A stretch of DNA of 64,000 nt from Bradyrhizobium sp. Ghvi (GTDB taxonomy: Bacteria; Pseudomonadota; Alphaproteobacteria; Rhizobiales; Xanthobacteraceae). The stretch covers positions 1,089,001 to 1,153,000 of the forward strand of contig NZ_FOVU01000001.1 of assembly GCF_900115265.1 (NCBI RefSeq). Direction: 5' to 3'. The notes under the pieces were generated by a model that did no database searches, was not told the origin of the DNA, and saw only the letters and a list, made by a program, of their open reading frames with translations. A program made the position numbers and the translations under genes. Shown piece after piece: positions 24,404 to 43,654 of the stretch; positions within the stretch are counted from its first letter, which is position 1; every line of letters begins with the position of its first letter.

Positions 24404-24454
24404 CACGAACGGTTTGGGGACCGGGACAAGACACGGGGAAGAGGGGACCAGGCG

Positions 24455-25192: not shown

Positions 25193-26478
25193 CTGAGATC
25201 CACGACGAAGCGGCGGACGATCCGCAGCACCCCGAGGAGCACATTGCGCCGGTTCCCCGCATCTCGGTGCAGGCCTTCTGCGAAACCGAGCAGACGCTGA
25301 AGGCGGTGACTGCGGCCGGCGAGGATCGCCGTCTCGCCAAGGCGCATCTCACCGCGAAGAGTGGCGGCCTCGCCGCTGCGATCGAAGTCTATGAAACGAT
25401 GCCGACGCCGAACGTCATCGTGATCGAGTCGGACGGCACGCGCGATATCCTCGAAGGCCTCGACGATCTCGCCGGCGTTTGCGATCCCGGCACGCGCGTG
25501 GTCGTGATCGGCAATCCCAACGACACCGCGCCCTATCGCGAGCTGGTGCGCCGCGGCGTCAACGATTACGTGGTCGGGCCGGTCGAGACCATCGACGTGG
25601 TGCGCTCGATCTGCAGCCTGTTCTCGGCCTCGGAAGCCATCATCACCGGCCGCATCATCGCGGTGGTCGGCGCCAAGGGCGGCGTCGGCGCCTCGACCGT
25701 CGCGCACAACGTGGCCTGGACCATCGCGCGCGACCTCGCGCTCGATTCCGTCGTGATCGATCTCGACCTCGCCTTCGGTACCGCGGGCCTCGATTACAAC
25801 CAGGATCCGGCACAGGGCATCGCCAATGCGGTGCTGTCGCCGGACCGGCCTGACACGGCCCTGATGGAGCGCCTGCTCGCCAAATGCAGCGAGCATCTCA
25901 GCCTGCTTGCTGCGCCTGCCACGCTTGATCGCGTTTATGATTTCGGCGCGGAAGCGTTCGACGCGATCTTCGACACGCTGCGCATGACCACGCCCTGCAT
26001 CGTGCTCGACGTGCCGCATCAATGGTCGGCATGGACCAAGCGGGCGCTGGTCAATGCCGACGACATCGTCATCGTGGCCGAGCCCGACCTCGCCAATTTG
26101 CGCAACACCAAGAACATGCTCTCGGTGCTCAAGACGGCGCGGCCGAACGATCGGCCGCCGCTCTACTGCATCAACCAGGTCGGCATGCACAAGCGGGCCG
26201 AGATCGACGTCAAGTCCTTCGCCAAGACGATGGAAAGCCAGCCGCTCGCGGTGATTCCGTTCGATTCGAAGCTGTTTTCGACTGCAGCCAATAACGGCCA
26301 GATGATCGCGGAGGTCTCGAAGAGCCACCGCACCACCGAGCTGTTCCAGAACATGGCCAACCGCCTCGCCGGGCGCGGCGAGGTGCGCAAGCCGAAGCGT
26401 TCGCTGCTCGGGCCGCTGCTGAAGAGGCTGAAGGCAAGGACCGGGCGCGGATCGGCGCCGCATCGCAAGGCGTCGTAA
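25189..26478 (+). CDS. cpaE: CpaE family pilus localisation ATPase
   Basis: A 429-residue MinD/ParA-like protein. An N-terminal receiver-like domain (PNVIVIESDGTRDILEGLDD ... GNPNDTAPYRELVRRG) precedes the ATPase with deviant Walker A IIAVVGAKGGVGASTVAHN and switch residues VVIDLDLAFGTAGLD. CpaE positions the Tad machine. The ATG overlaps the cpaD stop by 4 bp. No cpaF/tadB/tadC follows; the next gene is on the other strand. Confidence 0.93.
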   Translation: MTEIHDEAADDPQHPEEHIAPVPRISVQAFCETEQTLKAVTAAGEDRRLAKAHLTAKSGGLAAAIEVYETMPTPNVIVIESDGTRDILEGLDDLAGVCDPGTRVVVIGNPNDTAPYRELVRRGVNDYVVGPVETIDVVRSICSLFSASEAIITGRIIAVVGAKGGVGASTVAHNVAWTIARDLALDSVVIDLDLAFGTAGLDYNQDPAQGIANAVLSPDRPDTALMERLLAKCSEHLSLLAAPATLDRVYDFGAEAFDAIFDTLRMTTPCIVLDVPHQWSAWTKRALVNADDIVIVAEPDLANLRNTKNMLSVLKTARPNDRPPLYCINQVGMHKRAEIDVKSFAKTMESQPLAVIPFDSKLFSTAANNGQMIAEVSKSHRTTELFQNMANRLAGRGEVRKPKRSLLGPLLKRLKARTGRGSAPHRKAS

Positions 26479-27848: not shown

Positions 27849-27948
27849 ATGGTTCAGCGGGTTTCGACAGTCGCCTTTGAGGGGATCGAGGCCCGCGCTG
27901 TCGATGTGCAGGTGCAGGTCGCGCCCGGCCTGCCGGCCTTTGCCATTG
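27849..27948 (+). pseudogene. comM: comM (yifB) fragment 1 of 3: N-terminal 33 codons
   Basis: Encodes MVQRVSTVAFEGIEARAVDV through GLPAFAI, the start of a ComM/YifB Mg-chelatase-like AAA+ protein, then the frame enters element 1 and stops at 28106. Host sequence resumes in the same codon at 33246. Joining 27849-27948, 33246-33786 and 39835-40732 gives 1539 nt, 512 residues plus stop, without frameshift. ComM promotes branch migration during natural transformation in Vibrio and Haemophilus, and comM is the AbaR island target in Acinetobacter. Ribosome site GAGGGGGCAGC precedes the ATG. Confidence 0.9.
27937..27948 (+). repeat. attL of element 1 (12-bp direct repeat)
   Basis: CCTTTGCCATTG at the left host/element 1 junction, repeated exactly at 33234-33245. 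The likely crossover dinucleotide is GC at 27942-27943, judged from arm symmetry and from alignment with element 2. Confidence 0.85.
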
Positions 27949-27996
27949 CAGAGTGTGAATGCCAATACTATACGGCAGCATCACACGGAGATTGCA

Positions 27997-28197
27997 ATGG
28001 AATTACGGAACTCGACGACCCTACTGGCCCTACGGAGCATTGTTCGCCTCGCTTCGGCCATAGCACGCGCAGCGGGGGCATTGGGAGACCCAGGGAAGCG
28101 CCTTGAGAGGACCGTGGACCCTCAGGCTCGCAGAAGGCAGGCGGACATTGCCGACGTGCTGGCGACCCTGAATTGCGACGCCGCAGTCCGAGCCTGA
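27997..28197 (+). CDS. Small basic protein of element 1, upstream of recombinase
   Basis: A 66-residue, arginine-rich, probably helical protein (MELRNSTTLLALRSIVRLAS start; GKRLERTVDPQARRR middle). An ACGGAG ribosome site precedes the ATG. It overlaps, in another frame, the tail of the broken comM reading frame, and ends 3 bp before the recombinase start. Element 2 has a 65-residue ORF in the same place with a matching G-[KE]-R-L-E core. A recombination directionality factor or small regulator is possible; nothing proves it. Confidence 0.6.
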   Translation: MELRNSTTLLALRSIVRLASAIARAAGALGDPGKRLERTVDPQARRRQADIADVLATLNCDAAVRA

Positions 28198-28200
28198 CGC

Positions 28201-29868
28201 ATGGACGCCCCTGTGCGCACCGAGGCCCAGACCAAGGCCTACTCATACGTACGGTTCTCGACACCTTCCCAAGCCGCTGGAGCCAGCCTGCAGCGTCAGA
28301 GCGAGAAGGCGGCCAAGTATGCCCTCGAGCATGGGCTTACCTTGGACACCGAGTTGAACATGACGGACTTGGGGGTGTCCGCCTTCCGAGGGAAGAACGC
28401 GCGCACAGGAGCACTCGGGGAGTTCCTTGAGGCCGTCCAGAAGGGCTATGTCCAGCGGGGCAGCTACCTGCTGATCGAGAACATGGACCGCCTGTCGAGG
28501 GCGGACATCATCACCGCACAGGCTCTGTTCAGCCAACTGATCGTCAGCGGCATCACCGTGGTCACCCTAACGAACCTTGAGGCCTACTCGTTGGCTCGCC
28601 TCGAAAGGGAGCCGGAGGCCCTCTTGCTCGTTGTGTTGGAGTTGATCCGGGCGAACAAGGAGAGCGTGCGGAAGGCCCAGCTCATCGGTGACGCTAAGGC
28701 GAGGAAGAAGAAGCGGCTTGCAGAGCACGGACTTGAAGGCAAGCCGTACACCCGGCAGACACCTGCGTGGATCATGTGGTCTGAGGAGGAGCACCGATAC
28801 ACGCTGATTGAGGAGCGCGCGGCCATCGTTCGAGAGATGTTTGAGCGGATGGATGCAGGCGACGGGCTCGTGCGCATAGCCCGCGACCTCAACGTACGTA
28901 GTGTTCCAACGTGGGGGAGGAGCGGAAAGCAGAGAACTGCTGATCACTGGCGTACAAGCTACATCCGAAAGGTCCTCACGAGCACCGCGCCTATTGGCAC
29001 CTTCACGCCGCACATCACAACACACGATGAGGTCACCCGAGCGCGCCGTGACGAGCCCATGGCCCCGGTGGAGAACCTGTTTCCGGCTGCTGTCGATGCA
29101 GACACGTATTGGAGGGTGAACCGCAAGCTCAGCACCACAGCCGCGCGCGGGCGCAACGCCAGACAGCTCCCGAAGTCCATCGTGTCGGGGATCGTGTTCT
29201 GCGCGACGTGCGGGCACGCGGTTACAAGGGTTGCCAAGGGGGACTACGTTTACCTCGTGTGCTCGCGAGCGAACATGCGCGCGAGAGGCTGCGCCTACAA
29301 AGCCGTACGGTACGAGACCGTAGAGAAGGCATTGAGGGAGAACGGGAAGCATCTGGTCAAGGAAGCACCCCGAGGCAAGAGCGCCAGCGCCCTCGATAAG
29401 CAGATTGAGCGGACGCAGCATGAGGCGGACGGAATGGAGGTCCTCACGTTCGAGCTGCTGGAGCTGATTGCCGAAGAGAGAGGAAGCCCCGAAGCGACGG
29501 CAGCATCAAGAAGACTGCGAGAGGTGGAGCGCCGCCTCAAGAGCCTTCAGAGGGAACTTCGCGACCTGAGAACACAACGAGACACGATGACGATTGCAAG
29601 CGTCAGGGATCGTCTCAAGGCGGTAGAACGCGCACTCACCAGTAACACAGATGTGGCCGAGACCAACGCGGTTCTGAGGGACGCCATACGCCGCATCGTG
29701 CTTGATCCCGAGCAGGGCCATCTGTGGATACGCTGGCATCACTCGGAAGACGTGCAGGACGTCCGGTGCTTCACACGGCACATGGACTGGACCGAATTCA
29801 GGGAGACGACACCGCCAATGCACGCGTTGTTTCCCGAGAACTCAAACGCCCTCGACAAGACGCAGTAG
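28201..29868 (+). CDS. Large serine recombinase of element 1
   Basis: A 555-residue site-specific recombinase. The catalytic serine lies in AYSYVRFSTPSQ near residue 20, with ENMDRLSRAD of the resolvase domain (to about 150). A recombinase domain follows (about 185-300, YIRKVLTSTAPIGTF). A zinc ribbon (VFCATCGHAV ... VCSRANMRARGC) and a long coiled coil (about 395-480) complete it. This is the phiC31-type integrase architecture. It should integrate and excise element 1 at the comM repeats. It is homologous to the element 2 enzyme but clearly diverged, consistent with a different target site. The ATG at 28201 follows the small ORF by 3 bp. Confidence 0.95.
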   Translation: MDAPVRTEAQTKAYSYVRFSTPSQAAGASLQRQSEKAAKYALEHGLTLDTELNMTDLGVSAFRGKNARTGALGEFLEAVQKGYVQRGSYLLIENMDRLSRADIITAQALFSQLIVSGITVVTLTNLEAYSLARLEREPEALLLVVLELIRANKESVRKAQLIGDAKARKKKRLAEHGLEGKPYTRQTPAWIMWSEEEHRYTLIEERAAIVREMFERMDAGDGLVRIARDLNVRSVPTWGRSGKQRTADHWRTSYIRKVLTSTAPIGTFTPHITTHDEVTRARRDEPMAPVENLFPAAVDADTYWRVNRKLSTTAARGRNARQLPKSIVSGIVFCATCGHAVTRVAKGDYVYLVCSRANMRARGCAYKAVRYETVEKALRENGKHLVKEAPRGKSASALDKQIERTQHEADGMEVLTFELLELIAEERGSPEATAASRRLREVERRLKSLQRELRDLRTQRDTMTIASVRDRLKAVERALTSNTDVAETNAVLRDAIRRIVLDPEQGHLWIRWHHSEDVQDVRCFTRHMDWTEFRETTPPMHALFPENSNALDKTQ

Positions 29869-29876
29869 AAAGAAGA

Positions 29877-30812
29877 ATGAAGCATCAACTCAGCAAGATC
29901 AGCGCTCTCGATACGATCAAGGCGCTCAAGGAAGCCGAGGCCGACCTCGTGAGACCCGAAGGGAGCGACGGCAAGCCGGTGTATGCCCACGTTCCGCCAC
30001 AGGACATCGCGGAACGCTTGGAGCTGTTTCAGCCCCGAAGGCCGGGCTATGGTCTGCGCAAGGTAGACACCCAGCACGTCAACGCGCTTGCGACCCGCAT
30101 CACACGGAAGGGCGAGTTAGACCCTGTGTTGGTCGTGAAGCTCGGGAGCAAATGGGTGGTGGTTGATGGACACCACCGCATCGCCGCCTATCAGAAGCTC
30201 AAGTACAAGGCACCGATCAAGTGTGAATGGTTCGCAGGGACCGTGCGGGAAGCGATGGATGAGAGCCTGCGTCGCAACGAGAAGACCCACCTGCGAGTGG
30301 AGCAGGCTGACAAGGCCGAGGCCGCATGGACGCGTACGCTGATGGACTGGGATGGAAAAGGCTGGAGCAGCAGCAAGGCCCAAGTCGTGACCCTGACCGG
30401 CGCGAGCGATGGCACGGTCGCTCAGATGAGGCGGGTGGTTAAGTGGCACGATAATTATAAGACAGGTGTCGACAAGCACCCTACCGGCGAGAAGCTCTTC
30501 AGGGCTCTCGGGCCTGACCTACGCAGGCATTCTTGGAACAAGGCCAAGATGGTGCTTTTGGACCTTGCGCCCAAGGAATGGGACATGAACGACGCCGCAG
30601 CCAAGCTCGCCCGTGGCCTCGTCACAAGAATGACCACGAAGCTCTCCGAGGACCCCGAGGTAACCGCGCGCGCCCTGTGGCTCTACGACCGGGACCTATG
30701 CCCAAACCTCGTTAAGGCTCTGCAGGACGTCATGAGGAGCGAGAAGGAGGCCGAGGGGGACGAAGAGTTCTGGGAGCCTTACAAGCGGGTCGGTCTTGTG
30801 AGTGATGATTGA
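29877..30812 (+). CDS. ParB-like nuclease-domain protein of element 1
   Basis: A 311-residue protein with a ParB/sulfiredoxin-type N-terminal domain: RLELFQPRRPGYG, ELDPVLVVKLGSKWVVVDGHHR (the Asp-Gly-His-His-Arg motif) and IKCEWFAGTVREAM. A helix-turn-helix-like middle (SSSKAQVVTLTGASDGTVAQ) and a C-terminal TKLSEDPEVTARALWLYD follow. Start is the ATG at 29877, 6 bp after the recombinase stop. No ParA is present, so classical partition is unlikely; a regulator or DNA-binding accessory of the element is more plausible. Element 2 has a homologue. Confidence 0.82.
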   Translation: MKHQLSKISALDTIKALKEAEADLVRPEGSDGKPVYAHVPPQDIAERLELFQPRRPGYGLRKVDTQHVNALATRITRKGELDPVLVVKLGSKWVVVDGHHRIAAYQKLKYKAPIKCEWFAGTVREAMDESLRRNEKTHLRVEQADKAEAAWTRTLMDWDGKGWSSSKAQVVTLTGASDGTVAQMRRVVKWHDNYKTGVDKHPTGEKLFRALGPDLRRHSWNKAKMVLLDLAPKEWDMNDAAAKLARGLVTRMTTKLSEDPEVTARALWLYDRDLCPNLVKALQDVMRSEKEAEGDEEFWEPYKRVGLVSDD

Positions 30813-31428
30813 TGTCATGCCCCTGAGCGGCTCCGGGGACCACAGGGAGCCCGCGCCCCTCCTCGGGGTGCATTTAGGACCTGCAGGTATGCAATTGCAT
30901 AGGCCGAAAACATGTCCTGCGATTGGGTATCACTAAGTAATTACAATGGGTTAGGTGGAAATCAGTGCTTCCGGGGAGGGCGATAAAGTCAATAACCGAT
31001 TGGTGCCATCCGCGAGCAGACCGGACCTATAGTTTATAACCAATTGGGGCGTGGGACCCCGAAGGATCAAGCCCGCGAGATAAAATTACAAAGCGGGGGG
31101 AAGGGCCGCCCTCTTTGTGATCCCTCGACGCCACAGGCCCGTTTGGTGGCACAGGGAGCCCCACGGGCCGCCGTAAGCAGCACGCGCAGCAGAGCGTCAC
31201 GACGGGACACAGGACGATCAACAAGGCGCACACGCGCCCTATCCTGCCGCGGACCCAAGACAGGTGCTCGCTGCGGTGCTGGTGATTTCTGCTCTCAAGG
31301 CTGGTGCCACCAAGGGAAACCGAAAGCGTCAGCGTTGCAGCTCGGCGGCGGTCGCCCCTTTGAACCAAGAAGGTTTGGAAGAGGACGGACCAAGCGTGCC
31401 GTAGGGGCCCCAGTCAGCCCTGAGAGGC
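30813..31428. other. Non-coding stretch of element 1 with palindromes
   Basis: 616 bp without a convincing gene (the open frames have skewed, shadow-like composition). Visible structure: a perfect 12-bp palindrome ATGCAATTGCAT at 30889-30900; two related sites ATAACCGATTGGTGC (30992-31006) and ATAACCAATTGGGGC (31036-31050), 44 bp apart, each centred on CC[GA]ATTGG; and, at 31339-31366, a copy of a repeat that recurs at 32937-32963. Binding sites for the ParB-like protein or the recombinase are possible. Confidence 0.45.
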
Positions 31429-32040
31429 TCATTCCGCAGCGGGAGCAGCGGCCGCTGGAGGAGCGCCCGGCATCACGAGGGGCAGCTCGGGAGCAGGGTA
31501 CACGGGCTTACAGCGCTCGATTTGAATGATCTTGTTGGCAAGAGCCAATTGCTCAGGTGAGAAGCCCTCACACCACGTCTCATAACCGAGAAGAGGAATG
31601 GAGCGATTTCCATCAAGGTCCTTCTTACCGCCCCCATCGAAGGTGTGGATGCAGTCCAGCTTCACGGCGTACCCCTCGACCAAATGCACGGCAGTAGCGA
31701 GCATTATGGCATCGGGCGTGGAGAGCCTTCGATTGGTGGAAGTGCCTTTTCGATAAGGAAGGTCTCGGAAGCGGCCAGACAGGGTCATGACGATGGGGTT
31801 AGGCTCAATGGGAACGATGGCTCCCTCAAAATCGGCCATGAAGTCCTCGAACGACGCCGCAGCCTTCATCTGGCTGGGCAGCACTTCTGCCGATGAAATC
31901 GTCGAGGCGTAAATCTTGAGGCTCCCCTGCTTAGCGTCCTCAAGGAAGCTCTCAATACTCGGGATGTCATACGCCGCCTGCTCATCCATGAGGTACGCAG
32001 AGAAGACGCAGCTGTCCCAGAAGACATTTTGAAAGGACAC
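31429..32040 (-). CDS. PIN-domain protein (VapC-like) of element 1
   Basis: A 203-residue protein with PIN-domain acidic residues: FWDSCVFSAYL (Asp9), SSAEVLP, and STPDAIMLATAVHL (Asp). A helical extension and an Ala/Pro-rich tail follow. PIN proteins are metal-dependent RNases, often toxins. It starts with GTG at 32040, sharing one base with the stop of the upstream gene (TAGTG), so expression is coupled to that partner. It is larger than typical VapC (about 130 residues) and the partner is not a typical VapB antitoxin. Confidence 0.8.
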   Translation of the reverse strand: MSFQNVFWDSCVFSAYLMDEQAAYDIPSIESFLEDAKQGSLKIYASTISSAEVLPSQMKAAASFEDFMADFEGAIVPIEPNPIVMTLSGRFRDLPYRKGTSTNRRLSTPDAIMLATAVHLVEGYAVKLDCIHTFDGGGKKDLDGNRSIPLLGYETWCEGFSPEQLALANKIIQIERCKPVYPAPELPLVMPGAPPAAAAPAAE

Positions 32041-32834
32041 TACCAGTCCTCCCTCTCGGAGGGAGCACGGAAGGCCCCACGCCAGCGCTTCAGGTCCGCA
32101 TCTGTCTTGACAGGACGGACGCTATGGATGTCGAGCCGCACCGGCAACTGCGTCAAGCCGTTGTAATGCGCGGTGCCCTCTACGCGAACCCGAACGTCGA
32201 AATAGTTACGAACTTCGGGGATGCGAACCTTGTTGATGACGCAGTCAATCTCAAGGCTCCCGGCCGTCGTGACGAGCTTGGCCAATAGGGCATCGCCGCG
32301 AGCGTCCATAACTCTCAGGACGCCATCGAAACTCCCTACAGCCAAGCCTTTGTAGAGACGACTGCTTTGAGTGCGTATTTCTTCGGAGACAGACAACGCG
32401 CGCTCCGCTTGCGTCAACAGGAACTGATCCACTCGGATTACGTCGCAGTCCTGGAAGCGGACCTCGGCATGGGAAAACTGCGAGCCGACGCCCGCACCAA
32501 GCTGTTTGATGCTCCGAAGTAGCGGGCGAGGCAATGTGACAGTAGACCGATCACCATTGTAGACCGCACGGAGGGCTTTCTCGTAGGTGATGATACCGGA
32601 AGCCACAGCAGGCCGGGTAAAACGCCTGCGCTCACCGATCTGAACCTGAGCGCTGCCCTTCCGAAGGTCCTCAATCATGAACCGATGGAGAGACTTCCCG
32701 TTTGCGGCCTTATCAGCCACAGCGAGACCCGCGAGGAGGGCCCGGAGCTTCCGCGTGAAAACGTCGGCACGAACGGCTTTGTTGTCTCCATCCAAACCGT
32801 GAACGGTGAGCGTTGTTTGACTGTCGTAAGCCAT
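32040..32834 (-). CDS. Unknown protein coupled to PIN gene, element 1
   Basis: A 264-residue soluble protein (MAYDSQTTLTVHGLDGDNKA start) with no family recognised. It reads as an alpha-beta N-terminal half (KAVRADVFTRKLRALLAGLA) and a beta-rich C-terminal half (YFDVRVRVEGTAHYNGLTQLP). The ATG at 32834 has a TTAGG ribosome site; an in-frame TTG two codons earlier is less likely. It precedes and overlaps the PIN gene by one base. By position it may be the antitoxin, sensor or adaptor of a two-gene module. Confidence 0.6.
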   Translation of the reverse strand: MAYDSQTTLTVHGLDGDNKAVRADVFTRKLRALLAGLAVADKAANGKSLHRFMIEDLRKGSAQVQIGERRRFTRPAVASGIITYEKALRAVYNGDRSTVTLPRPLLRSIKQLGAGVGSQFSHAEVRFQDCDVIRVDQFLLTQAERALSVSEEIRTQSSRLYKGLAVGSFDGVLRVMDARGDALLAKLVTTAGSLEIDCVINKVRIPEVRNYFDVRVRVEGTAHYNGLTQLPVRLDIHSVRPVKTDADLKRWRGAFRAPSEREDW

Positions 32835-33077
32835 TGCCAACCTAAGCCGGAAGATACCCGCAGAACTGAACCGACCCTATCATCGACCCATTAAGCATTC
32901 CGCCACAATGCCTTTCTGAGGGACACTACTGCGGGAAGCTCGGCGGCGGCTGTCCCTTCAACCTGAGCAGTTTGAAGCACGGGGGCGGCGGTCGGCTAAA
33001 ATGGGGCCCGGTACGTCGAAGGGGACCCGTTGATTTAGCTCAAAGGCTCGACCGGCAGTCCCCTGCTGGATGAGGAA

Positions 33078-33215
33078 ATGGAACGGCCCAAGGACCGCAC
33101 AGAGCCTGAGCCCGAGCCCTCGCCTTCGCGAACAGAGGAGGCGCGCCGGATCATCGCGCAATACGCGGAGGACCTGAAGGAAATCTTGCGTAGACTGCGG
33201 CGGAAGCTCAATTGA
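33078..33215 (+). CDS. 45-residue charged small protein at right end of element 1
   Basis: A short ORF too small for routine gene calls: MERPKDRTEPEPEPSPSRTE followed by EARRIIAQYAEDLKEILR and a basic end. A disordered Glu/Pro stretch leads into one amphipathic helix. A GATGAGGA ribosome site precedes the ATG. It ends 19 bp before attR. The non-random composition supports coding; function unknown. Confidence 0.5.
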   Translation: MERPKDRTEPEPEPSPSRTEEARRIIAQYAEDLKEILRRLRRKLN

Positions 33216-33233
33216 ATTGTCATTGACAGTCTA

Positions 33234-33245
33234 CCTTTGCCATTG
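33234..33245 (+). repeat. attR of element 1 (12-bp direct repeat)
   Basis: CCTTTGCCATTG, identical to 27937-27948. To its left, GTCATTGACAGTCTAC (33219-33234) matches, at 12 of 16 positions, the reverse complement of the element's left end (27948-27963), so the joined ends form an imperfect palindrome as expected for attP of a serine integrase. Confidence 0.85.
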
Positions 33246-33786
33246 TCGGCCTTCCCGACAAGGCGGTGTCGGAGGCGCGCGAGCGGGTTCGTTCGGCGCT
33301 GATCGCCTCGGGGCTGGCGCTGCCGGCGCGGCGGATCACTGTCAATCTGGCACCCGCCGATGTCCCGAAGGAAGGCAGCCACTACGATCTTCCGATCGCG
33401 CTCGGGCTGATGGCAGCGATCGGCGCAATTCCGCCGGATGCGCTGACCGGCTTCACCGTGCTCGGCGAGCTCGGTCTCGACGGATCGATCGCACCCGTCG
33501 CAGGTGTGCTTCCCGCCGCGATCGGCGCCAATGTGCGCGAGGAAGGCTTGATCTGCCCTGCCGCCTGCGGCTCCGAAGCGGCCTGGGCGAGCCCTGATAT
33601 CCAGATCGTCGCCGCGCATTCGCTGATCCAGATCGCCAATCATTTCAAGGGCACGCAGGTGCTGTCGCGGCCCGTGCCGAAGGTGCATGAAGCCGTAAGC
33701 TCGCCGCTCGATCTGCGCGACATCAAGGGCCAGGAGAGCGCCAAGCGGGCGCTGGAGATCGCGGCCGCCGGCGGCCATCATCTTCT
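33246..33786 (+). pseudogene. comM: comM (yifB) fragment 2 of 3: middle part
   Basis: Encodes V-G-L-P-D-K-A-V-S-E-A through GGHH-L, the rest of the N-terminal domain of ComM (ITVNLAPADVPKEGSHYDLP, FTVLGELGLDGSIAPVAGVL and the link LDLRDIKGQESAKRALEIAA). It lies between the two elements with no start codon of its own in a good context; a GTG at 33266 is the first candidate. The frame ends at a TGA (33791) contributed by element 2. No internal stop or frameshift is present, so the sequence has not decayed. Confidence 0.9.
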
Positions 33787-33795
33787 CATGTGATT
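33776..33795 (+). repeat. attL of element 2 (CT core)
   Basis: Host CATCATCTT joins the element end CATGTGATT through CT at 33785-33786. The same CT occurs at 39833-39834 with AATCACATG on its left. CT is the only shared sequence that restores Leu-Leu-Met-Ile-Gly in comM. Confidence 0.8.
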
Positions 33796-33832
33796 GCTTC
33801 GATGCCCATAGTGGGCTAACGGAGACATCACC

Positions 33833-34030
33833 ATGACACGCCTCACCACCGCCCTGACACGGTGCATCGCCACAACCGCAATCCGCCATAGCTGGGCCAT
33901 CCTGAGTTCCGCCGACAGGCGACAAGCCCGTGGGGAACGCCTTGAGACCTGGGCCCACCACTTTGCCGTGCGATGGGGTTGCGTTGACGAAGTGTTAAGC
34001 ACGCTTGCTGATCAAGCTTCGAGAGGCTGA
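33833..34030 (+). CDS. Small basic protein of element 2, upstream of recombinase
   Basis: A 65-residue arginine-rich protein (MTRLTTALTRCIATTAIRHS start, GERLETWAHHFAVRW middle). ACGGAG precedes the ATG as in element 1. Place, size and the G-[KE]-R-L-E core parallel the 66-residue ORF of element 1, though overall identity is low. Possible excision factor or regulator; unproven. Confidence 0.6.
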   Translation: MTRLTTALTRCIATTAIRHSWAILSSADRRQARGERLETWAHHFAVRWGCVDEVLSTLADQASRG

Positions 34031-34040
34031 GAGCGGGCCC

Positions 34041-35645
34041 ATGGACACGCAGCGGCCTCCAAGAGCCTATAGCTACGTTCGGTTCAGCACGCCCGAGCAA
34101 GCCAAGGGACATTCGCTCCAGCGCCAGACCGACGCGGCACAGGCGTGGGCCGCTGCGAACAAGGTGGTGCTGGACGATGAGTTAACCTTTCAGGACAGGG
34201 GTGTCTCAGGGCTCCACGGCGCCAACATGGAAACAGGAGCGCTCGGGGTGTTCCTTGAGCGCGTCAAGGACGGCACGATCCCGCGTGGCTCGTGGCTGTT
34301 GGTCGAGAACCTTGACCGCATCAGCCGACAGGTTGCTCGCAAGGCTGTCCGGGCGATTGAGGACATCGTTGAGGCGGGCGTGACCGTAGTGGACATGTCA
34401 GACGGTGGACGGGAATACAGTGCCGAGACGCTCGACCGCGATCCGATGCTGTTCATGATGATGGTAGTTAGGTTCATCAGGGCTAACGAGGAGAGCGCAA
34501 CCAAGGGCGTGCGTGTGGCCAAGGCGCATGCTGCCAGACGGCAGAAGTTCGCAGGCCCGGAGAAGATCACCAAGCCATACACGCTCAGGCTCCCGGCGTG
34601 GATACGCTGGAGCGCCGAGACCTGCTGCTATGAGCTGATCGAAAAGCGCGCAGAGTTGCTGCGGTGGATGTTCGAGATGGCCGCAGACGGCACGGGCGTG
34701 CATAGCATTGCCGCCCACCTCAACGACACCAAGGAACCCACTTGGGGAGCTGGTGGATGGAAGGCCCGCTATTGGCATCGCAGTTATATCCGCAAGCTTC
34801 TCACCAACAAGGCGGCCATAGGCATCTTCGTGCCCCACACGGTGCGGAAGGTCGAGGGTAAGCGCACGAAGCAGCGGACACCGCAAGAGCCCATTGCACA
34901 CCGCTTCCCGGCCGCCGTGGATCGAGAGCTATTCGAGCGCGTCAATGCACGACTGGGCACCACAGAGCCACGAGGGAAGAACGCCAACGCTCCGGTGCGG
35001 TCAATCTTCGCCGGGATCATGAAATGCCAGCACTGCGGTGGCACAGTTACGAGGGTCAACAAGGGGGAGCACGTCTACTTGGTCTGCGCAGCAGCACACG
35101 CGAAGGCAGGCACATGCCGATATGAGAGCGTCCCCTACGCTGAGGCAGTCAGTACCTTCAGGCTTCGATTGCTGGGAGTGCTCGAAGATGCACCAACCGG
35201 CAACAACACCGCCGACTTGGATGCCCGAATAGAACAACTGAAAGGGATGGTGGACGCAGGTGAGGAATACGTGAACGAACTGCTGGACCTGCGGATTTCG
35301 GACAAGAGCAGGGCCGCTGGGCAGCGACTACGGGATGCTGAGCAGGAACTTGATGGACACCGTGAGGAACTGAGGGCGCTGCTGGAGCGCAGGGAGACCT
35401 TCAGGAGCACCAACGTTCTAAAGCGGCTGGAAGCCGTGGAGAAGGCGCTCATCGCGGAACCCTTGGACACCGAGGCGGCCAATAAGGCGCTGCGAGGGGC
35501 GGTGCGCAAGATGGTCATGCGGCCACAGGAAGGTCGCTTGGACATCCTTTGGCATCACGCCGAGGAGCCGCAGGAGACCCAGTTCATCACGAGCCGCTTC
35601 GACTTCGAGGCGCAGGACATGGAAGACTTAACGGAAGAGGACTGA
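34041..35645 (+). CDS. Large serine recombinase of element 2
   Basis: A 534-residue phiC31-type recombinase. The catalytic serine is in AYSYVRFSTPEQ (about residue 17), with VENLDRISRQ of the catalytic domain. A recombinase domain (YIRKLLTNKAAIGIF), zinc ribbon (MKCQHCGGTVTRV ... CAAAHAKAGTC) and coiled coil (about 390-470) follow. Domain layout matches the element 1 enzyme. The ATG at 34041 (MDTQRPPRAYSY) is preferred over an in-frame ATG at 34005 that lies inside the small ORF. Confidence 0.95.
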   Translation: MDTQRPPRAYSYVRFSTPEQAKGHSLQRQTDAAQAWAAANKVVLDDELTFQDRGVSGLHGANMETGALGVFLERVKDGTIPRGSWLLVENLDRISRQVARKAVRAIEDIVEAGVTVVDMSDGGREYSAETLDRDPMLFMMMVVRFIRANEESATKGVRVAKAHAARRQKFAGPEKITKPYTLRLPAWIRWSAETCCYELIEKRAELLRWMFEMAADGTGVHSIAAHLNDTKEPTWGAGGWKARYWHRSYIRKLLTNKAAIGIFVPHTVRKVEGKRTKQRTPQEPIAHRFPAAVDRELFERVNARLGTTEPRGKNANAPVRSIFAGIMKCQHCGGTVTRVNKGEHVYLVCAAAHAKAGTCRYESVPYAEAVSTFRLRLLGVLEDAPTGNNTADLDARIEQLKGMVDAGEEYVNELLDLRISDKSRAAGQRLRDAEQELDGHREELRALLERRETFRSTNVLKRLEAVEKALIAEPLDTEAANKALRGAVRKMVMRPQEGRLDILWHHAEEPQETQFITSRFDFEAQDMEDLTEED

Positions 35646-35650
35646 GCCGA

Positions 35651-36700
35651 GTGGCGAAGAAGAAGTTCAGAAGTGAGCACACCGCTGCAACACTTGACGT
35701 CGAGGTGAAGAAGGCCACCGAGGAGCTACAACAGCCGGCCAAGGGAGATGAGCGGGACCTCAAGCTACCTTTGGACGACATCGAAACAAGGCCTGAGCTA
35801 TTCCAGCCACGTATCTTCTCGCACGGGATGAAGGAAGTGGATGAACGTAACGTCCACGACCTCCTCAAGATCATCAGCGCTATAGGCGAGCTTGACCCGA
35901 TCACGGTGGTCAAGCTGGACAATCGGTGGACGTGCGTCGATGGGCACCACCGACTGGAATGCTACAGAAGGCTGAAGTGGAAGGACCCGATCAAGGCCAA
36001 CTGGTTCGCAGGCAGCGTGCGAGAAGCGTTGGACTACGCGGTGACGAGCAACGAAGTCATAAAGCTCGCCATACCCGACCGCGACCGCTACGAACTGGCA
36101 TGGCAAAGGGTTGTGTTGGGCTGGGGAAGCAAGGCCGAAATCGCACGCTTCGCAATGGTCAGCGAGCGCCTTGTGGCCAACATGCGAATGGTCAAGGCCA
36201 AGTTCGAGAAGGGAGACGCCTTCGCGAAGGAGTTCCGGCTGAACCTCGGAGCTGAACTAAAAGACGTGTCGTGGCGGAGGGCGAAGATGGCTCACGACGG
36301 TGCGACACCGGGAGAAATCGACAAGCACGAGGTGGCCGTAAGGCTGGCCAAGGTCATCAGAAACCGGATGCACCACAAGCTGTCGGAGGACCCCGAGGTG
36401 ACCGCGCTGGCTCTTGCACTCTACGATCCGCACCTGCCCCAGCCTCTCGGAGAGCTGCTCCGCAAATACACGACCAAGGAAGGCGACCTGGAGGTCCCCA
36501 CGGTCCCAAAGGCCTCCATCGCCAACATGTCGGACCGAGAGCTGTTAGAGACGGTCGAGAGGATCGCCCAGGCCCGTCAGACGCTACTCAGGAGCCAGAG
36601 GGAAGCCGAGGCGGAGCAGGAGCGCCGGAACGCCGGCTGGACACCCTCGGATGACACATGGGACCAGTGGGTTCAGGAAGCCGGGGAGGTCGAGGAGTAG
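35651..36700 (+). CDS. ParB-like nuclease-domain protein of element 2
   Basis: A 349-residue homologue of the element 1 protein: RPELFQPRIFSHGMKEVDER, ELDPITVVKLDNRWTCVDGHHR (ParB motif), IKANWFAGSVREALD, and KLSEDPEVTALALALYDP. It adds a C-terminal coiled-coil tail (LLRSQREAEAEQERRNAG). The GTG at 35651 lies 5 bp after the recombinase stop, giving the same recombinase-ParB pairing as in element 1. Role unknown; DNA binding is likely. Confidence 0.82.
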   Translation: MAKKKFRSEHTAATLDVEVKKATEELQQPAKGDERDLKLPLDDIETRPELFQPRIFSHGMKEVDERNVHDLLKIISAIGELDPITVVKLDNRWTCVDGHHRLECYRRLKWKDPIKANWFAGSVREALDYAVTSNEVIKLAIPDRDRYELAWQRVVLGWGSKAEIARFAMVSERLVANMRMVKAKFEKGDAFAKEFRLNLGAELKDVSWRRAKMAHDGATPGEIDKHEVAVRLAKVIRNRMHHKLSEDPEVTALALALYDPHLPQPLGELLRKYTTKEGDLEVPTVPKASIANMSDRELLETVERIAQARQTLLRSQREAEAEQERRNAGWTPSDDTWDQWVQEAGEVEE

Positions 36701-36869
36701 ACCAAGGTGTGCACGATGGACACTGCTTATGCACGTGCACACCCTGATCCAGCAGGATGCGGTATTCAGGCACCGGGAATTAGTTCATAGCTAGCTGGTA
36801 CCCCGGCACTCCGCTAAATCAACGCTGGCCCAGAGGACCCCTGCTTAGCCACCAGGCACCACCAAGCCC

Positions 36870-37391
36870 CTACCTCTCCTCATGCCACTGTTCGTCGGCA
36901 GGCTCCCGTGGGGCGAACCGGCGCTCGTAGCTCTGGAGGGCGCTCTCGTAAGCCATCGACAACTGCATGGCATACAGCCCGTTGCCAGCCGCTCGGATGC
37001 CCGCGAGCACCCCAAGCTCGGTGGCGGCCTTCAGTCTCACTTGTCCAGACACGTTGCTGTTGTCAGCCACGCCGGCAAGGTAATCATCAACACCCCCGAT
37101 GACCTCAGGCGGGCAGGGAAAGCGCTGCTTGTGCAGGAAGTCTTCCAGATGCGTCGTCATCTTGCGGCGGTTCGACACCCAGAACAGCACCCAGCCCCAC
37201 ACAATACGCCGGAGCCAAATAGCGAAGTAGACCGCTTGGAGTGCAAGAAAGATGAGCACGGCGTTGGCGGCCACATCCCTATCGCCGTTGAAGAAACTGC
37301 TCGCGACCCACGCTATTGCGACATCTGGAATGCAGTTGATGAGCAGGGCGGCGATGAAGCCGCGCTCCTGTTGTTTTCGTATTTGGACCAT
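36870..37391 (-). CDS. Predicted membrane protein of element 2
   Basis: A 173-residue protein starting at the ATG at 37391 with a GAGAGGG ribosome site; an in-frame ATG at 37430 lacks one. Hydrophobic segments FIAALLINCIPDVAIAWVAS and AVLIFLALQAVYFAIWL, plus IVWGWVLFWV, suggest two or three membrane helices. A soluble C-terminal half (about 90 residues) follows. No family recognised. As cargo beside nuclease-like genes it could be an effector or anchor. Confidence 0.6.
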   Translation of the reverse strand: MVQIRKQQERGFIAALLINCIPDVAIAWVASSFFNGDRDVAANAVLIFLALQAVYFAIWLRRIVWGWVLFWVSNRRKMTTHLEDFLHKQRFPCPPEVIGGVDDYLAGVADNSNVSGQVRLKAATELGVLAGIRAAGNGLYAMQLSMAYESALQSYERRFAPREPADEQWHEER

Positions 37392-37576
37392 AGCCCGCCC
37401 TCTCAAACCCCACGTTGAGAACACCGCCATAGCACGTGATTTGCAGAACCGTCGTCACCCTCAAGCGCGCTGCAACTGCGACTTTGGCAGCATTCAACCG
37501 CTTTAGTCCGCGCATTTTGAAGCCGGGCGCCGGGTTCGATCAAAAACGGGACCCTGCCAGCCAGATGGGACCCAAA

Positions 37577-38473
37577 TCATGCTTGGGGTAGCGGTGGCAA
37601 GCCAATCAAGACGGTGCGGAGCCGAAGCGGACACTCAGGCTTACGTTCCTCAGGTGGGATAATCGCAAACCCAATGTGTGGAGAGATGGGCCGCATTTGG
37701 ATCGAACATACGAGTAAGTCCTCACCAAAGGTCAGCAGATTTTCGATCAGGACTTCAAGGTCTCGAAACAGGGATGTCTCTCGCCGAGCGTCCTTACCCT
37801 CGCGGCGCCAACTAGGATCAAGGCGGCCGTCCGATGTTGCGCGATAGTTCTCCAGCACCATGGCTGTGCCCGCATCCGGATGCTCGACCGCATTTCTGAA
37901 CTTGATGATGTCAGAAACCCACGGCTCCTCAGAACGAAGCATCTGCGTGAAATCGGCGTCCGAGCCGAACATGTCGGCGGCCCATGTGATCACAGCGCCT
38001 TCTTTGATCTTTCCTTTGTCGATCCAGCTAATAAGGCGGCTCGCATCCGCAAACTTCGTCCCAAAGAACAGGTTCAGCACCCGCAGCGCGTCACGCAGGT
38101 ATAGCTTTGCTTCATACAAGAATGTGTTGACCTCATCCTCCATGCCGATGACGAAAGGGAAGCTTCGGGCACCTTGGTCCACCGCAGCAGCGACTTCTTG
38201 AAGCGATATGTCCCTAGCTTGGCAGAGGCGCGTGTAGGCGTCGAAGCACCGCAATAGACTTCGTTGAAGGCAATCGTGGTAGAGCCGAAAAACCTGATCT
38301 TGACCTTCCTTGGGAAGGTTGGAGCAGTTGAGCACCTCCAACGTTTGGACGGAGAGCCGCGCAACGATTGGGTTGTTGGTCCCATGGTTGGAGCGCTTCT
38401 GGACAATGAACGGCTGCGGGCTGACGGGCTGATCCATGGCATGTTCTATCATTGAACAAAGCCGGAACGCCAC
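37577..38473 (-). CDS. HEPN-like protein of element 2
   Basis: Up to 298 residues, mostly helical. The segment IIKFRNAVEHPDAG contains Arg-Asn-x3-His, the RNase motif of HEPN domains, preceded by helices suited to that fold (VNTFLYEAKLYLRDALRVLN). HEPN proteins include toxins and abortive-infection RNases. The start is uncertain: in-frame starts at 38473 (GTG), 38452 and 38437 (ATG) all lack strong ribosome sites. HEPN assignment is by motif only. Confidence 0.6.
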   Translation of the reverse strand: MAFRLCSMIEHAMDQPVSPQPFIVQKRSNHGTNNPIVARLSVQTLEVLNCSNLPKEGQDQVFRLYHDCLQRSLLRCFDAYTRLCQARDISLQEVAAAVDQGARSFPFVIGMEDEVNTFLYEAKLYLRDALRVLNLFFGTKFADASRLISWIDKGKIKEGAVITWAADMFGSDADFTQMLRSEEPWVSDIIKFRNAVEHPDAGTAMVLENYRATSDGRLDPSWRREGKDARRETSLFRDLEVLIENLLTFGEDLLVCSIQMRPISPHIGFAIIPPEERKPECPLRLRTVLIGLPPLPQA

Positions 38474-38701
38474 CTCAAGGTTCGGTGAGGGCGTACTTCA
38501 GGCCGAGCGCTGGCAAAACGAGACACACGTAACCACGGCCTATTCGTCAACCACGCAGCGGGCGGGATCATCTGCGACCCTGTGGGATTTCAATCCAACC
38601 GTTCGGGAGGCGACGCCGCCAGCGTAGCGATGCCGCCAGTAGAGGGCCACCAATACCAACGCAACTAGGACCGCCCCCATCGAACTAGCCACCGCATCGG
38701 G

Positions 38702-39559
38702 TCACTCGGGCTTTGTGGAGTTGGGCACTGCACTAACGCTGATCGTTCCGTCCGCCTGGGTGGTGAGCACCAAATCAACGTGCTGGCCCGGCGCAAGCTC
38801 TGCGGTCGCCACTGCCGCCTGCGTAATGGGCGTGGCAGTATCGGCGCTTGAGTAGACTTGGAATGACAAAGGCACCTCCTCCCGAGTTACCGTGTAGGAA
38901 ACGAGGAGCACGCCAAGCGAAGCCTGAACTCGCTGATCCCCGTCCATGATGTAAATCAGAGGACAACTCTGACGAAGGCTGACGTTATGCTCCCCGACCG
39001 TAAAAGGAGCATTGGGCGTTTCTGTCAGGGTTGCTTGCGCAATAGGGAGCACACGGTCCTTGTCTATCACCGCGCCGTTTTCGTCGTACAGCACCGGGTG
39101 CTCAAGGTTCACTCCGTTTGGAAACTCAACATGGAAGAAGGCGTTCGTGATGACTTTCCTAAACAGGGTCACTGACGTGGGTGGGCACCAGTTGAACCCA
39201 TCTGCTTGATCGAGAGACAAGCAATGGATGTTGTAGACCGCAGCCTTCCGTATGGCGGTGCGAGTGAACCCCTTGCTTGAAACCATCACGCCTTTATGGA
39301 CCCCTGTGTCAGCACACTTGCTACGAAAGGCCTCCACAGCCTCAACACCAATCGGACGCGAGCGGTCGCGACACTCCAAGGCGACCACTAGGGCGTGATG
39401 CTCGTGAGTAATCGTTAGAACCACATCGTGCTCTCGGAGCTTTCCGGTGATCTTGTCCCGGACACGCTTCGGGCTTTCGATTTGGATTGGTTGTCCAGCA
39501 GCACGTGCCCCTTCGATGGCGCGTACGAGCCGTTGTAGGTCTCTACCTGTCTTGGCCAT
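38702..39559 (-). CDS. Mrr-like restriction endonuclease-fold protein of element 2
   Basis: A 285-residue protein. Residues about 1-120 resemble the Mrr catalytic domain: HDVVLTI, VVALECRDRSRPIGVEAVEA, then KGVMVSSKGFTRTAIRKAAV. The usual Glu-x-Lys of the PD-(D/E)xK site is Glu-Cys-Arg here, so activity is uncertain. The C-terminal half is beta-rich (YSSADTATPITQAAVATA) and unrecognised. Probably a defence-type nuclease or a relative that senses foreign or modified DNA. Confidence 0.7.
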   Translation of the reverse strand: MAKTGRDLQRLVRAIEGARAAGQPIQIESPKRVRDKITGKLREHDVVLTITHEHHALVVALECRDRSRPIGVEAVEAFRSKCADTGVHKGVMVSSKGFTRTAIRKAAVYNIHCLSLDQADGFNWCPPTSVTLFRKVITNAFFHVEFPNGVNLEHPVLYDENGAVIDKDRVLPIAQATLTETPNAPFTVGEHNVSLRQSCPLIYIMDGDQRVQASLGVLLVSYTVTREEVPLSFQVYSSADTATPITQAAVATAELAPGQHVDLVLTTQADGTISVSAVPNSTKPE

Positions 39560-39822
39560 GTCTGCCCCCAGCGCCCTTGTGGGCGGCCACTGCCCACTGC
39601 GGGTTAGCCTTATACTTCTTCAGAGAGACGGGGGCAGCAACGAGCCGGGGAACACGTGGCTTTGGGGCAGCAAAGGGCCTACGCTGCACCGAGCCTGAAA
39701 GACGCCAGCGGCCTCAAGCCCCAAACTTTGAAGCGTGGGGGTGGCATCGCGGCCTTTTAGGGTCCGGTGCGCGAGATGGGACCCAAAACTTCTTCGAAGC
39801 GAGGGCCATTTTCCCATTGACG

Positions 39823-39843
39823 AAATCACATGCTGATGATCGG
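39823..39843 (+). repeat. attR of element 2 (CT core)
   Basis: Element end AATCACATG (39824-39832), core CT (39833-39834), host GATGATCGG. The element's last bases include an ATG (39830-39832) in frame with comM fragment 3. Confidence 0.8.
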
Positions 39844-40732
39844 CGCGCCAGGTGCCGGCAAATCGATGCTGGCGGCGCGCCTGCCCTCGATCCTGCCGCC
39901 GCTGTCGCCGGGCGAATTGCTCGAGGTCTCGATGATCGCCTCGGTCGCCGGCGAGATCGAGGGTGGCGCGCTGACCTCGCGGCGGCCGTTCCGCTCGCCA
40001 CATCATTCCGCCAGCATGGCTGCGCTCACCGGCGGCGGCGCGCGCGCCAAGCCCGGCGAGATCTCACTGGCGCATCAGGGCGTGCTGTTCCTCGACGAGC
40101 TGCCCGAGTTCGATCCGCGCGTGCTGGATTCGCTGCGCCAGCCCTTGGAGAACGGCGAGGTCTCGGTCTCCCGCGCCAATCACCGCGTCACTTACCCTGC
40201 GCGCTTCATGCTGATCGCTGCGATGAATCCCTGCCGCTGCGGCAACGCGTTCGAGCCCGGCTATGCCTGCAAGCGCGGCCGCGTCGATCGCTGCACCGGT
40301 GACTACCAGGCACGCATCTCCGGCCCGCTGATGGATCGCATCGATCTGCGTATCGAGGTCCCCGCCGTCACCGCAGCCGATCTGATCCTGCCGCCCCCGG
40401 CGGAAGGCTCGGCCGAAGTCGCCGCGCGCGTGGCAGCCGCGCGCGACATCCAGCTCGCGCGCTACAGAGATGCAGGCCTGCCGCAAGTCCGCACCAATGC
40501 CGAGGCGCCGGCTGCGGTGCTCGAAGACATCGCCAAGCCTGATACCCAGGGACAAAAGCTGCTGCGCGATGCCGCCGAGACCATGCGGCTGTCGGCGCGC
40601 GGCTATCACAGGGTGTTGCGGGTGGCACGCACGCTCGCCGACCTCGACCGCGCCGAGAAGATCGGCCGGCTGCATCTCGCCGAGGCGCTGTCCTACCGCG
40701 CACTCGCGGAGGATGTGCGGCAGTTGGCGTGA
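39835..40732 (+). pseudogene. comM: comM (yifB) fragment 3 of 3: AAA+ and C-terminal domains
   Basis: Encodes the ATPase part: Walker A MIGAPGAGKSMLAARLPSIL, Walker B GVLFLDELPEF, the Mg-chelatase motif AMNPCRCGNAFEPGYACK, the arginine region YQARISGPLMDRIDLRIEVP and the C-terminal helical domain (RGYHRVLRVARTLADL). All are intact. An ATG at 39830, supplied by element 2, followed by a native ATG at 39836 would allow this 300-residue half to be made alone. No decay is seen, so reconstitution by double excision remains possible. Confidence 0.9.
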
Positions 40733-41422: not shown

Positions 41423-43654
41423 GTGGCAATGGGTCGGACGTTCCGGATCAAGGTGCGCATGCGCCGCTTCAGGCGACAGCACCCCAGAATTGCCTTCGCG
41501 ATCCGCTCCTTCATGATCTTCTCGGCGACGTTCGGCGGGGCCTATGGCTTCGTCACCGGCAGCCGCTCGGAAAATTCCGGCTACGATCCCAACACCTTCG
41601 CGATCGGCGCGAGCTTCCTGTTCGCGCTCGCCTGCCTCGGCCTTGCCACGCTCAGCATGCGGCTGCGCTTCGTCAACAAGCGGATGCGCAAGCTCGCGGC
41701 CCACAACGAGGCGCTGATCGACCGCAATTGGGAGCTGAAGGAAGCCGAAGAGCGCGCCCGCAGCCTGTTCGAGCAGCAGGGCGATCTCATCGTTCTGCGC
41801 GACCATCAGGGCCGCATCACCTTCGCCAACGATGCCTATTGCGCCCTGGCCGGACAGGCGCGAAGCGCGCTGATTGGCACACGCTTTGACTTCGACGTGC
41901 TGGAACAGGGCGACAGCGCGCGCGAGAGCAACGGCACGCGCATTCACGACCAGAGAATCTCGACGTCCTCAGGCGCGCGCTGGATCGCCTGGCGCGAAGG
42001 TTTTGTGCGGCTCGATGCCGGCCAGCCCGCCGAACTGCAGAGCGTCGGGCGCGACGTCACCGACCGCACCGAGACCGAACGCGCGCTGTCGGATGCCCGC
42101 GACCAGGCCGATGCCGCCAACCGCGCCAAATCGCGGTTCCTCGCGATGGCCTCCCACGAGATCCGCACCCCTCTCAACGGCATCATCGGCATGGGCGGGC
42201 TCCTGCTCGACACCACGCTGACGCCGGAGCAGACGACTTATGCCAGGGCGGTGAAAACATCAGGCGAAGCACTGATGGCGCTGATCGAGGAGCTGCTCGA
42301 CTATTCCAAGATCGAGGCCGGCAAGCTCGATCTCGACCAGCGTCCCTTCGCGCTCTCGACCCTGATCGAAGAAGTCACCGAACTGCTGGCGCCGCGCGCC
42401 CAGGCCAAGAAGCTCGAGATCGCCGCTTACGTCGACGAGCAATTGCCGCTCGAGGTCGTCGGTGACGCCGCGCGGCTGCGCCAGGTGCTGCTCAACCTCG
42501 CCGGCAATGCCATCAAATTCACCGCATCAGGCGGCGTGGCGCTGCTCGTCGAGCCCGGCATCTGGCCGAATGAAATCAGCTTTCTGGTGCGCGACACCGG
42601 CATCGGGATCGCGCCCGAAGCACAGTCGCGCATCTTCCGCGAATTCGAGCAGGCCGACGACCGCGTCGCCCGCACCTATGGCGGCACCGGCCTTGGCCTC
42701 GCCATCAGCGAACGCATCGTCAAGCGTATGGGCGGCCGCATCACGCTGGAGAGTGAGCCCGGCAAGGGTTCGACCTTTGAGGTCGCAATTCCGCTCGCGC
42801 CCTCGCAAGGCAGCGCCGGACAGACGACATTCCCTAGCCCGGACCTCGCTGGCAAGTCGATCCTGCTGGTGGCTGCTGGCATCGAAGCGTCTCTGATCGC
42901 GCGGCGGCTGGAACGCTGGGGCGGCCAGACCTGCCTGGTCACGGATGCGACCGTCGCCGAAGCGTTGCTGCCTGAGCGCTCGTGGCATGCGGTGCTGCTC
43001 GATCGCGCGTTCGGTTCAGATATCACCGATCGCCTGGGCGAAGCCGCCCGCGCGCATGCGACGCAACGGCTCGTGCTGCTGACGCCGAGCTCGCGCCATG
43101 AAAAACTCTCGACCGCCTTCACCGGCTTCCTGGTGAAGCCGCTCCGCGCAGCCTCGCTCGCCGCGCGCCTTGCGCTGGCGCCGGAAATCGCCTCGCCCGA
43201 TCTCGCGCCAGAGCCTGCCGAACCGGCGTCGGTCAGACCGCGCACGAGCGGCCTCTCGATCCTGGTCGCCGAGGACAATGAGATCAACGCGCTCTTGATG
43301 CGGTCGCTGCTGACGAAGCTCGGCCATCGCGTCGTCATCGCGGTTCATGGTGAGGCCGCGCTGGAATCCTGGCTCGCGGCCTCATCGGCCGGCACGCCAT
43401 ACGATCTGGTTCTGATGGACATCCAGATGCCGCAGCTCGATGGCATCGAAGCGACCAAACGCATCCGCGCCCACGAGGCCGCTACCGGCGGCCACCACAC
43501 GCCGATCCTCGCGCTCACGGCGAACACGCTGGTGGAGGATCGCTACGCCTGTTTCGAGGCTGGCATGAATGGATTCTTGATCAAGCCGCTCGATCGCGAA
43601 AAGCTGGATGAGGCGCTCGCGGGGCTCGCGGCCTCGCGGCAACTTACCGTTTAA
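41423..43654 (+). CDS. Membrane hybrid sensor histidine kinase
   Basis: 743 residues (GTG at 41423; ATG two codons later). Order: two N-terminal helices ([36 protein letters not shown]), a PAS domain (about 110-215), HisKA with [18 protein letters not shown], HATPase_c ([31 protein letters not shown]), a receiver-like domain without the usual acidic pair, and a complete receiver ([24 protein letters not shown], Lys in FLIKPLD). The middle receiver is probably degenerate. No output regulator is adjacent. Confidence 0.9.

What the first reader, a model, noticed from the sequence alone, without database searches (positions are those of the whole stretch)
27849..40732. One comM gene precisely split twice by two related recombinase elements
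Sequence shows ComM codons in three blocks (27849-27948, 33246-33786, 39835-40732). Joined, they give 1539 nt and 512 residues with no stop or frameshift, restoring Gly-Leu-Pro-Ala-Phe-Ala-Ile-Val-Gly-Leu-Pro and Leu-Leu-Met-Ile-Gly-Ala-Pro-Gly-Ala-Gly-Lys-Ser. Two related elements using different sites in the same gene, about 540 bp apart, is unusual. comM is a known island target (AbaR in Acinetobacter), and other elements that split genes reversibly exist (comK prophage in Listeria, nif elements of cyanobacteria). The lack of decay suggests recent insertion or selection for occasional excision, so transformation could be switched by the elements. The switch is inference.
Basis: partly seen in the sequence, partly recalled or inferred. 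Interest (0 to 1): 0.93.

Follow-up and report, generated by a model that had tools for sequence, protein, structure and literature searches.

The report
comM split twice by docking elements
In this soil bacterium (Bradyrhizobium) the gene comM is cut cleanly into three pieces by two small related mobile elements sitting at two different docking sites that are hit again and again in its relatives; each element's own integrase enzyme likely put it there, and the cuts would be expected to weaken uptake of foreign DNA, which is untested.

Summary
The three comM blocks join to 512 codons without a stop, and intact comM of same-genus genomes reads through both joints. The inserts (5,297 and 6,048 bp) are related serine-integrase elements (integrases 42% identical), each with a ParB-like gene and cargo.

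The double split is not a one-off. In 265 genomes of the genus, insertions were assigned to site A (codon 32) in 16, site B (codon 214, Walker A) in 20, and a third site (IS1595-type transposon) in 5; 3 of 38 affected genomes carry two, near chance (1.85 expected). Relatives elsewhere mostly use site B.

New details: the 9 small site-A elements share a self-complementary crossover dinucleotide (GC) and lie in both orientations; site-B ones have CT/TT and one orientation, except one with AG that is inverted. Sites A and B are each other's best match within comM (one tie). ParB-like genes are shuffled between A and B elements.

A regulated switch is not supported; excision was not testable. Interrupted copies are little decayed, so insertions are probably young or short-lived. 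comM as an integrase hotspot is already published.

The parts
27849..27943 (+). comM block 1 (codons 1-32), ending with crossover dinucleotide GC at 27942-27943
   Evidence: intact relatives
27944..33240 (+). element 1 (5,297 bp) in site A, forward orientation; attP arms TTGTCATTGAC..CCTTT-GC-CATTGCAGAGTGTGAATGCC
28201..29868 (+). element 1 large serine recombinase, 555 aa
   Evidence: Pfam; catalytic-domain residues invariant in alignment A1, (roles recalled)
29877..30812 (+). element 1 ParB-like protein, 311 aa
   Evidence: fold like ParB/Noc/KorB N-terminal region, (model pLDDT 77)
31429..32040 (-). element 1 cargo, 203 aa, no family (looks PIN-like to the eye, recalled motif, untested)
   Evidence: no match over cut-off
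32040..32840 (-). element 1 cargo, 266 aa, no family; a fragment also lies in the site-A element of G174
33241..33786 (+). comM block 2 (codons 33-214), ending with crossover dinucleotide CT at 33785-33786
33787..39834 (+). element 2 (6,048 bp) in site B, forward orientation; attP arms CCCATTGACGAAATCACATG-CT-CATGTGATTGC..ATGCCC
34041..35645 (+). element 2 large serine recombinase, 534 aa
   Evidence: Pfam
35651..36700 (+). element 2 ParB-like protein, 349 aa
36870..37430 (-). element 2 cargo, 186 aa; a relative lies in the site-B element of G188
   Evidence: no family
37577..38440 (-). element 2 cargo, 287 aa, no family
38702..39559 (-). element 2 cargo, 285 aa, Mrr-type restriction endonuclease domain
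   Evidence: Pfam PF04471, E 1.3e-7
39835..40732 (+). comM block 3 (codon 214 on, to the stop)

Best explanation
comM is interrupted at two separate attachment sites by two related serine-integrase elements, each likely inserted by its own integrase in an independent event at a recurrent hotspot. Shown from sequence: exact ends, a shared dinucleotide at each site (GC at site A, CT at site B), repeated use of both sites by related elements, and orientation that follows the dinucleotide. Inferred: the integrases cut at those dinucleotides as known serine integrases do; because GC pairs with itself in either direction, site-A elements can go in either way round, whereas CT fixes the direction. 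Also inferred: site A was colonised by retargeting from a site-B-using ancestor, helped by the likeness of the two sites; the different dinucleotides would keep the two resident elements from recombining with each other and losing the middle of comM; ComM is inactive while interrupted; insertions are young or quickly lost.
For: Joined gene intact. Junctions of 9 small site-A elements: GC at both ends in 9 of 9, 3 forward and 6 inverted, with attP arms that align only after turning each element into its own orientation. Of 11 small site-B elements 10 are forward (8 CT/CT, 1 TT/TT, 1 CT/TT) and the one inverted (G237) has AG in its own orientation; 3:6 against 10:1, Fisher P 0.017. Five site-B islands examined are all inverted with AG. 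Intact hosts: core A is G in 86 and C in 89 of 90; core B is C 72/T 18 then T 90 of 90. Site A and site B are each other's best match within comM: B to A best of 1,477 positions, A to B best with one tie. Integrase tree: the site-A and site-B small clades each 100/100. In genome contigs 65 of the 80 loci kept lie beside comM pieces, 58 at site B and 7 at site A counting L127 by hand. Recent movement: elements in G020 and G057 are 99.94% identical over 9,608 bp while their comM pieces match 579 of 639 and 805 of 894 bases.
Against: No integration or excision was observed; mechanism rests on sequence and on known serine integrases. One junction set does not fit cleanly: G056 reads GA on the left and GC on the right, and G020 reads CT and TT. 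Orientation counts are small and related elements are not independent. Inversion in place after insertion would give the same site-A picture. Site-A origins number 3 or 4 depending on whether L127 is counted, and the root is not inferred. 15 of 80 loci showed no comM piece; whether they sit elsewhere or the flank is too short was not tested.
Confidence: 0.85

Rival explanations
1. Reversible switch: the elements excise in some cells or conditions, restore comM and so turn transformation on and off, as in the comK prophage or nif elements.
For: Precise ends and an undamaged joined frame. The window's comM branch shows 1 amino-acid-changing against 36 silent changes. Pooled over 33 interrupted genomes the ratio is 146:1135, far under the neutral site ratio of about 2.7.
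Against: The same follows from young insertions. Pooled interrupted copies are slightly less constrained than their intact sisters (146:1135 against 101:1145, P 0.006); this rests on G083 and G068 (without them P 0.13; against the wider intact control 312:2964, P 0.06 with and 0.69 without them). 4 of 20 small elements lack a full-length integrase frame (G011, G174, G057, G012). ParB-like genes are swapped between integrase types, so they do not look like an integrase-matched excision factor. No excision factor was recognised.
Confidence: 0.12
2. Selected sabotage: elements that break comM persist better because transformation can no longer cure them, so comM damage itself is what is selected.
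For: Three unlike machineries hit comM in this genus (two integrase lineages, an IS1595-type transposon), and published work finds competence genes enriched among serine-integrase targets (PMC10083194, passages) and argues for this conflict (PMC4774983, passages).
Against: Sites A, B and C encode conserved protein motifs, and conserved DNA alone could draw integrases. A second insertion is neither rarer nor clearly commoner than chance. No phenotype was measured.
Confidence: 0.4
3. Assembly artefact or one composite element mistaken for two.
For: The genome is a draft of 41 contigs.
Against: The locus lies inside a long contig (window at C26:1089001-1153000); each element has its own integrase, its own att arms and independent relatives at the same exact site in other assemblies, complete chromosomes included.
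Confidence: 0.02

Closest known systems
Large serine recombinases that target the magnesium chelatase (ComM-like) gene, Durrant et al. 2022, PMC10083194 (passages seen)
   Same: Same enzyme class and target gene; the paper reports this gene as target of 12.4% of predicted site-specific enzymes and competence genes as enriched.
   Different: In the passages seen nothing is said of two sites in one copy, a self-complementary core, or two-way insertion.
Phage WO (sr1WO) in the Wolbachia magnesium chelatase gene, PMC9203015 (passages)
   Same: Serine recombinase, same kind of gene, split by the insert.
   Different: A prophage; the present elements are 5-6 kb with no phage structural family in PHROGs.
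AbaR/Tn6022 and Tsy in comM, PMC11472951 and PMC10293859 (passages)
   Same: comM is the target; interruption is linked there to low transformation.
   Different: Tn7-like or tyrosine-recombinase machinery aimed at Walker B; here serine integrases at codon 32 and at Walker A.
MGEs in two distinct sites of comFA with 34%-identical integrases, PMC4774983 (passages)
   Same: Divergent integrases using two sites of one competence gene.
   Different: There in different genera; here both sites are filled in one copy.
Bxb1 dinucleotide rule, Ghosh 2003 and Smith 2004 (not read; cited in PMC3783163 and PMC4111918, passages)
   Same: Central dinucleotide fixes orientation.
   Different: Here natural elements show both cases: GC in both orientations, CT and AG in opposite ones.

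Membership tests
Serine-integrase (large serine recombinase) element | Resolvase, Recombinase and zinc-ribbon domains in one protein | tested here: met
   both integrases
Serine-integrase (large serine recombinase) element | attP and attB inverted repeats around a shared 2-bp core | tested here: met
   attB palindromy 26 of 42 (A) and 20 of 42 (B) against mean 13.0
Serine-integrase (large serine recombinase) element | Asymmetric core that fixes direction | tested here: not met
   not met for element 1 (GC is self-complementary); met for element 2 (CT). Usual rather than strictly defining
Serine-integrase (large serine recombinase) element | Integration and factor-dependent excision shown | not testable with these tools
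   needs an assay
comM-targeting serine-integrase elements | Repeated insertion at a fixed place in comM by related integrases | tested here: met
AbaR/Tn6022-type | Tn7-like transposition genes and Walker B target | tested here: not met
   none of the nine element proteins matches such a family; site is codon 32 or 214
Prophage | Phage structural genes | tested here: not met
   PHROGs finds only integrase and ParB-like families
ICE or IME | Relaxase or conjugation genes | tested here: not met
   no such Pfam or NCBIfam match in the nine proteins
Developmentally excised element (fdxN/nif type) | XisF-type recombinase over the curated cut-off, programmed excision | tested here: not met
   XisF model scores 49.9 and 37.1 bits, cut-off 375; programmed excision not testable

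The most novel reading that the evidence does not exclude
comM is a multi-dock: one integrase lineage has moved to a second look-alike site in the same gene and there uses a self-complementary crossover core, making it a natural direction-blind integrase; elements at both docks come and go so fast that comM flickers between broken and whole across the genus, acting at population level as a competence switch.
Probability: 0.2. Interest if true: 0.8.

Novelty: new variant of a known kind. Interest (0 to 1): 0.5.

Why it matters
It gives a natural experiment on how a serine integrase changes its target and how its crossover dinucleotide sets direction: two sister integrase clades, two sites in one gene, one core self-complementary. 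Native pairs with an orientation-blind core could be useful tools, and the hotspot lets one ask directly whether mobile elements gain by breaking comM.

Tried and rejected
Viral contigs hold no relative of the element 1 integrase. Plasmid and phage records hold only relatives under 60% identity (22 and 50 records). No solved structure matches by sequence. PADLOC gave only weak matches. ParB-like protein as excision factor: disfavoured, since its tree mixes site A and B (6 changes; 435 of 500 shuffles as low; one clade for A rejected, p-AU 5e-74) while the integrase tree does not. It matches ParB/Noc/KorB structures by Foldseek (E 2e-6, TM-score to query at most 0.37), from a model of moderate confidence. 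tRNA and Rfam searches of the window found nothing.

Counts corrected on checking: site A was first put at 15 and 37 genomes in all; a re-search of 31 genomes whose match range had not been printed found G176, giving 16 and 38. Of the 16, G320 and G069 were seen at the left junction only; of the 20 at site B, G299 at the right only. G256 (probable B, contig ends) and G032 (one weak comM match) were not examined and not counted; nine genomes had no comM match. Frameshifted copies without an element were not counted as insertions. In one search G218 was dropped for want of an outgroup; G069, G320, G299 and G176 were not in that test. G083 had one stop close to a junction, outside the codons kept; G068 has one in both.

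Full report
What is there. The joined comM is 1,539 nt and 512 codons with no stop, and same-genus copies align over the full length. Both inserts carry a large serine recombinase, a ParB-like gene and cargo; element 2 has an Mrr-type nuclease domain. Neither has phage structural, relaxase or transposon families among the nine proteins scanned.

How common. A genus search covered 265 genomes; 61 with reduced or split matches were searched again and 31 more whose ranges had not been printed. By junction sequence, insertions lie at site A in 16 genomes, site B in 20 and site C in 5, 38 genomes in all. Three have two: this one and G218 (A and B) and G068 (A and C). Independent hits would give 1.85, P 0.28 for three or more. 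Site C holds an element with 23-bp inverted ends and an 8-bp target duplication in all five cases (read by eye); the transposase of one of them (G246) is IS1595-type. Besides 5-10 kb elements, sites A and B hold islands of about 26-39 kb with integrases of a separate clade; some carry defence-like genes.

Mechanism. Turned into its own orientation, each small site-A element shows the same attP arms around GC, 9 of 9, although 3 lie forward and 6 inverted in comM. Close relatives G011 and G018 differ in orientation. The 11 small site-B elements are forward with CT or TT, save G237, which is inverted and has AG; all 5 site-B islands examined are inverted with AG. One island, G056, has GA/GC at site A, and G020 has CT/TT, so single mismatches or later mutations occur. 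This is what the known dinucleotide rule predicts (PMC3783163, PMC4111918, passages). The outer arm motif CATTGAC sits at the same distance from the core in E1 and E2 attP (by eye), while the inner bases differ, which fits retargeting by change of the inner recognition part; that is inference.

Origin of the two sites. In the genome-contig scan 269 relatives were found and 80 kept; 65 of 80 lie beside comM pieces, 58 at site B and 7 at site A with L127 placed by hand. They include Pseudomonadota, a Gemmatimonadota MAG (L135) and Geomonas (L153). On the 92-row tree (quick method) the A/B label needs 3 changes, 4 with L127; shuffled labels never did as well (0 of 500). Site B scores best of 1,477 positions for likeness to site A (one tie) and the reverse holds without a tie; none of 476 other anchors ranks site B so high.

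Module exchange. A ParB-like gene stands by the integrase in 18 of 20 small elements (in pieces in G159 and G281), as a fragment in G012, and was not found in G174. Its tree of 16 rows mixes A and B elements; G188 (site B) has the ParB-like type of element 1. Two elements in one comM, as here, would bring such modules together; that is inference.

Age. The element shared by G020 and G057 is 99.94% identical over 9,608 bp, their comM pieces about 90%, so it moved recently. comM of the window shows no relaxed selection (1 changing, 36 silent). Pooled, interrupted copies are slightly relaxed, owing to two genomes. Young or short-lived insertions explain this; repeated excision is not excluded.

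Prior work. Searches found comM known as a hotspot of serine recombinases and of other elements (PMC10083194, PMC9203015, PMC4774983, PMC11472951, PMC10293859; passages only). In these listings and passages I saw no report of two integrase elements in one comM, of comM insertions in Bradyrhizobium, or of natural two-way insertion with a self-complementary core; the library lacks most subscription papers.

Noticed in passing
L068:747-842: In G052 a stray comM piece (residues 30-61) lies about 1.3 kb upstream of the comM start piece, perhaps a remnant of another site-A event.
   Followed up: no
L061, L062, L088: Large comM islands carry defence-like genes: SIR2 with HerA, PIN with Abi_C, a NACHT C-terminal domain; one G244 protein matches a Tle1-like phospholipase.
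   Followed up: partly
L095-L098, L059, L110: IS1595-type element aimed at one spot of comM in several families.
   Followed up: partly
comM nt 640-641 in 90 intact copies: The site-B core differs between hosts (CT 72, TT 18), which may act as lock and key; element G083 has TT at both ends.
   Followed up: partly
22886-26478: Tad/Flp pilus genes upstream of comM: secretin, CpaD, CpaE-like ATPase.
   Followed up: no
41423-43654 and 43687-45657: Two convergent hybrid sensor kinases downstream of comM.
   Followed up: no
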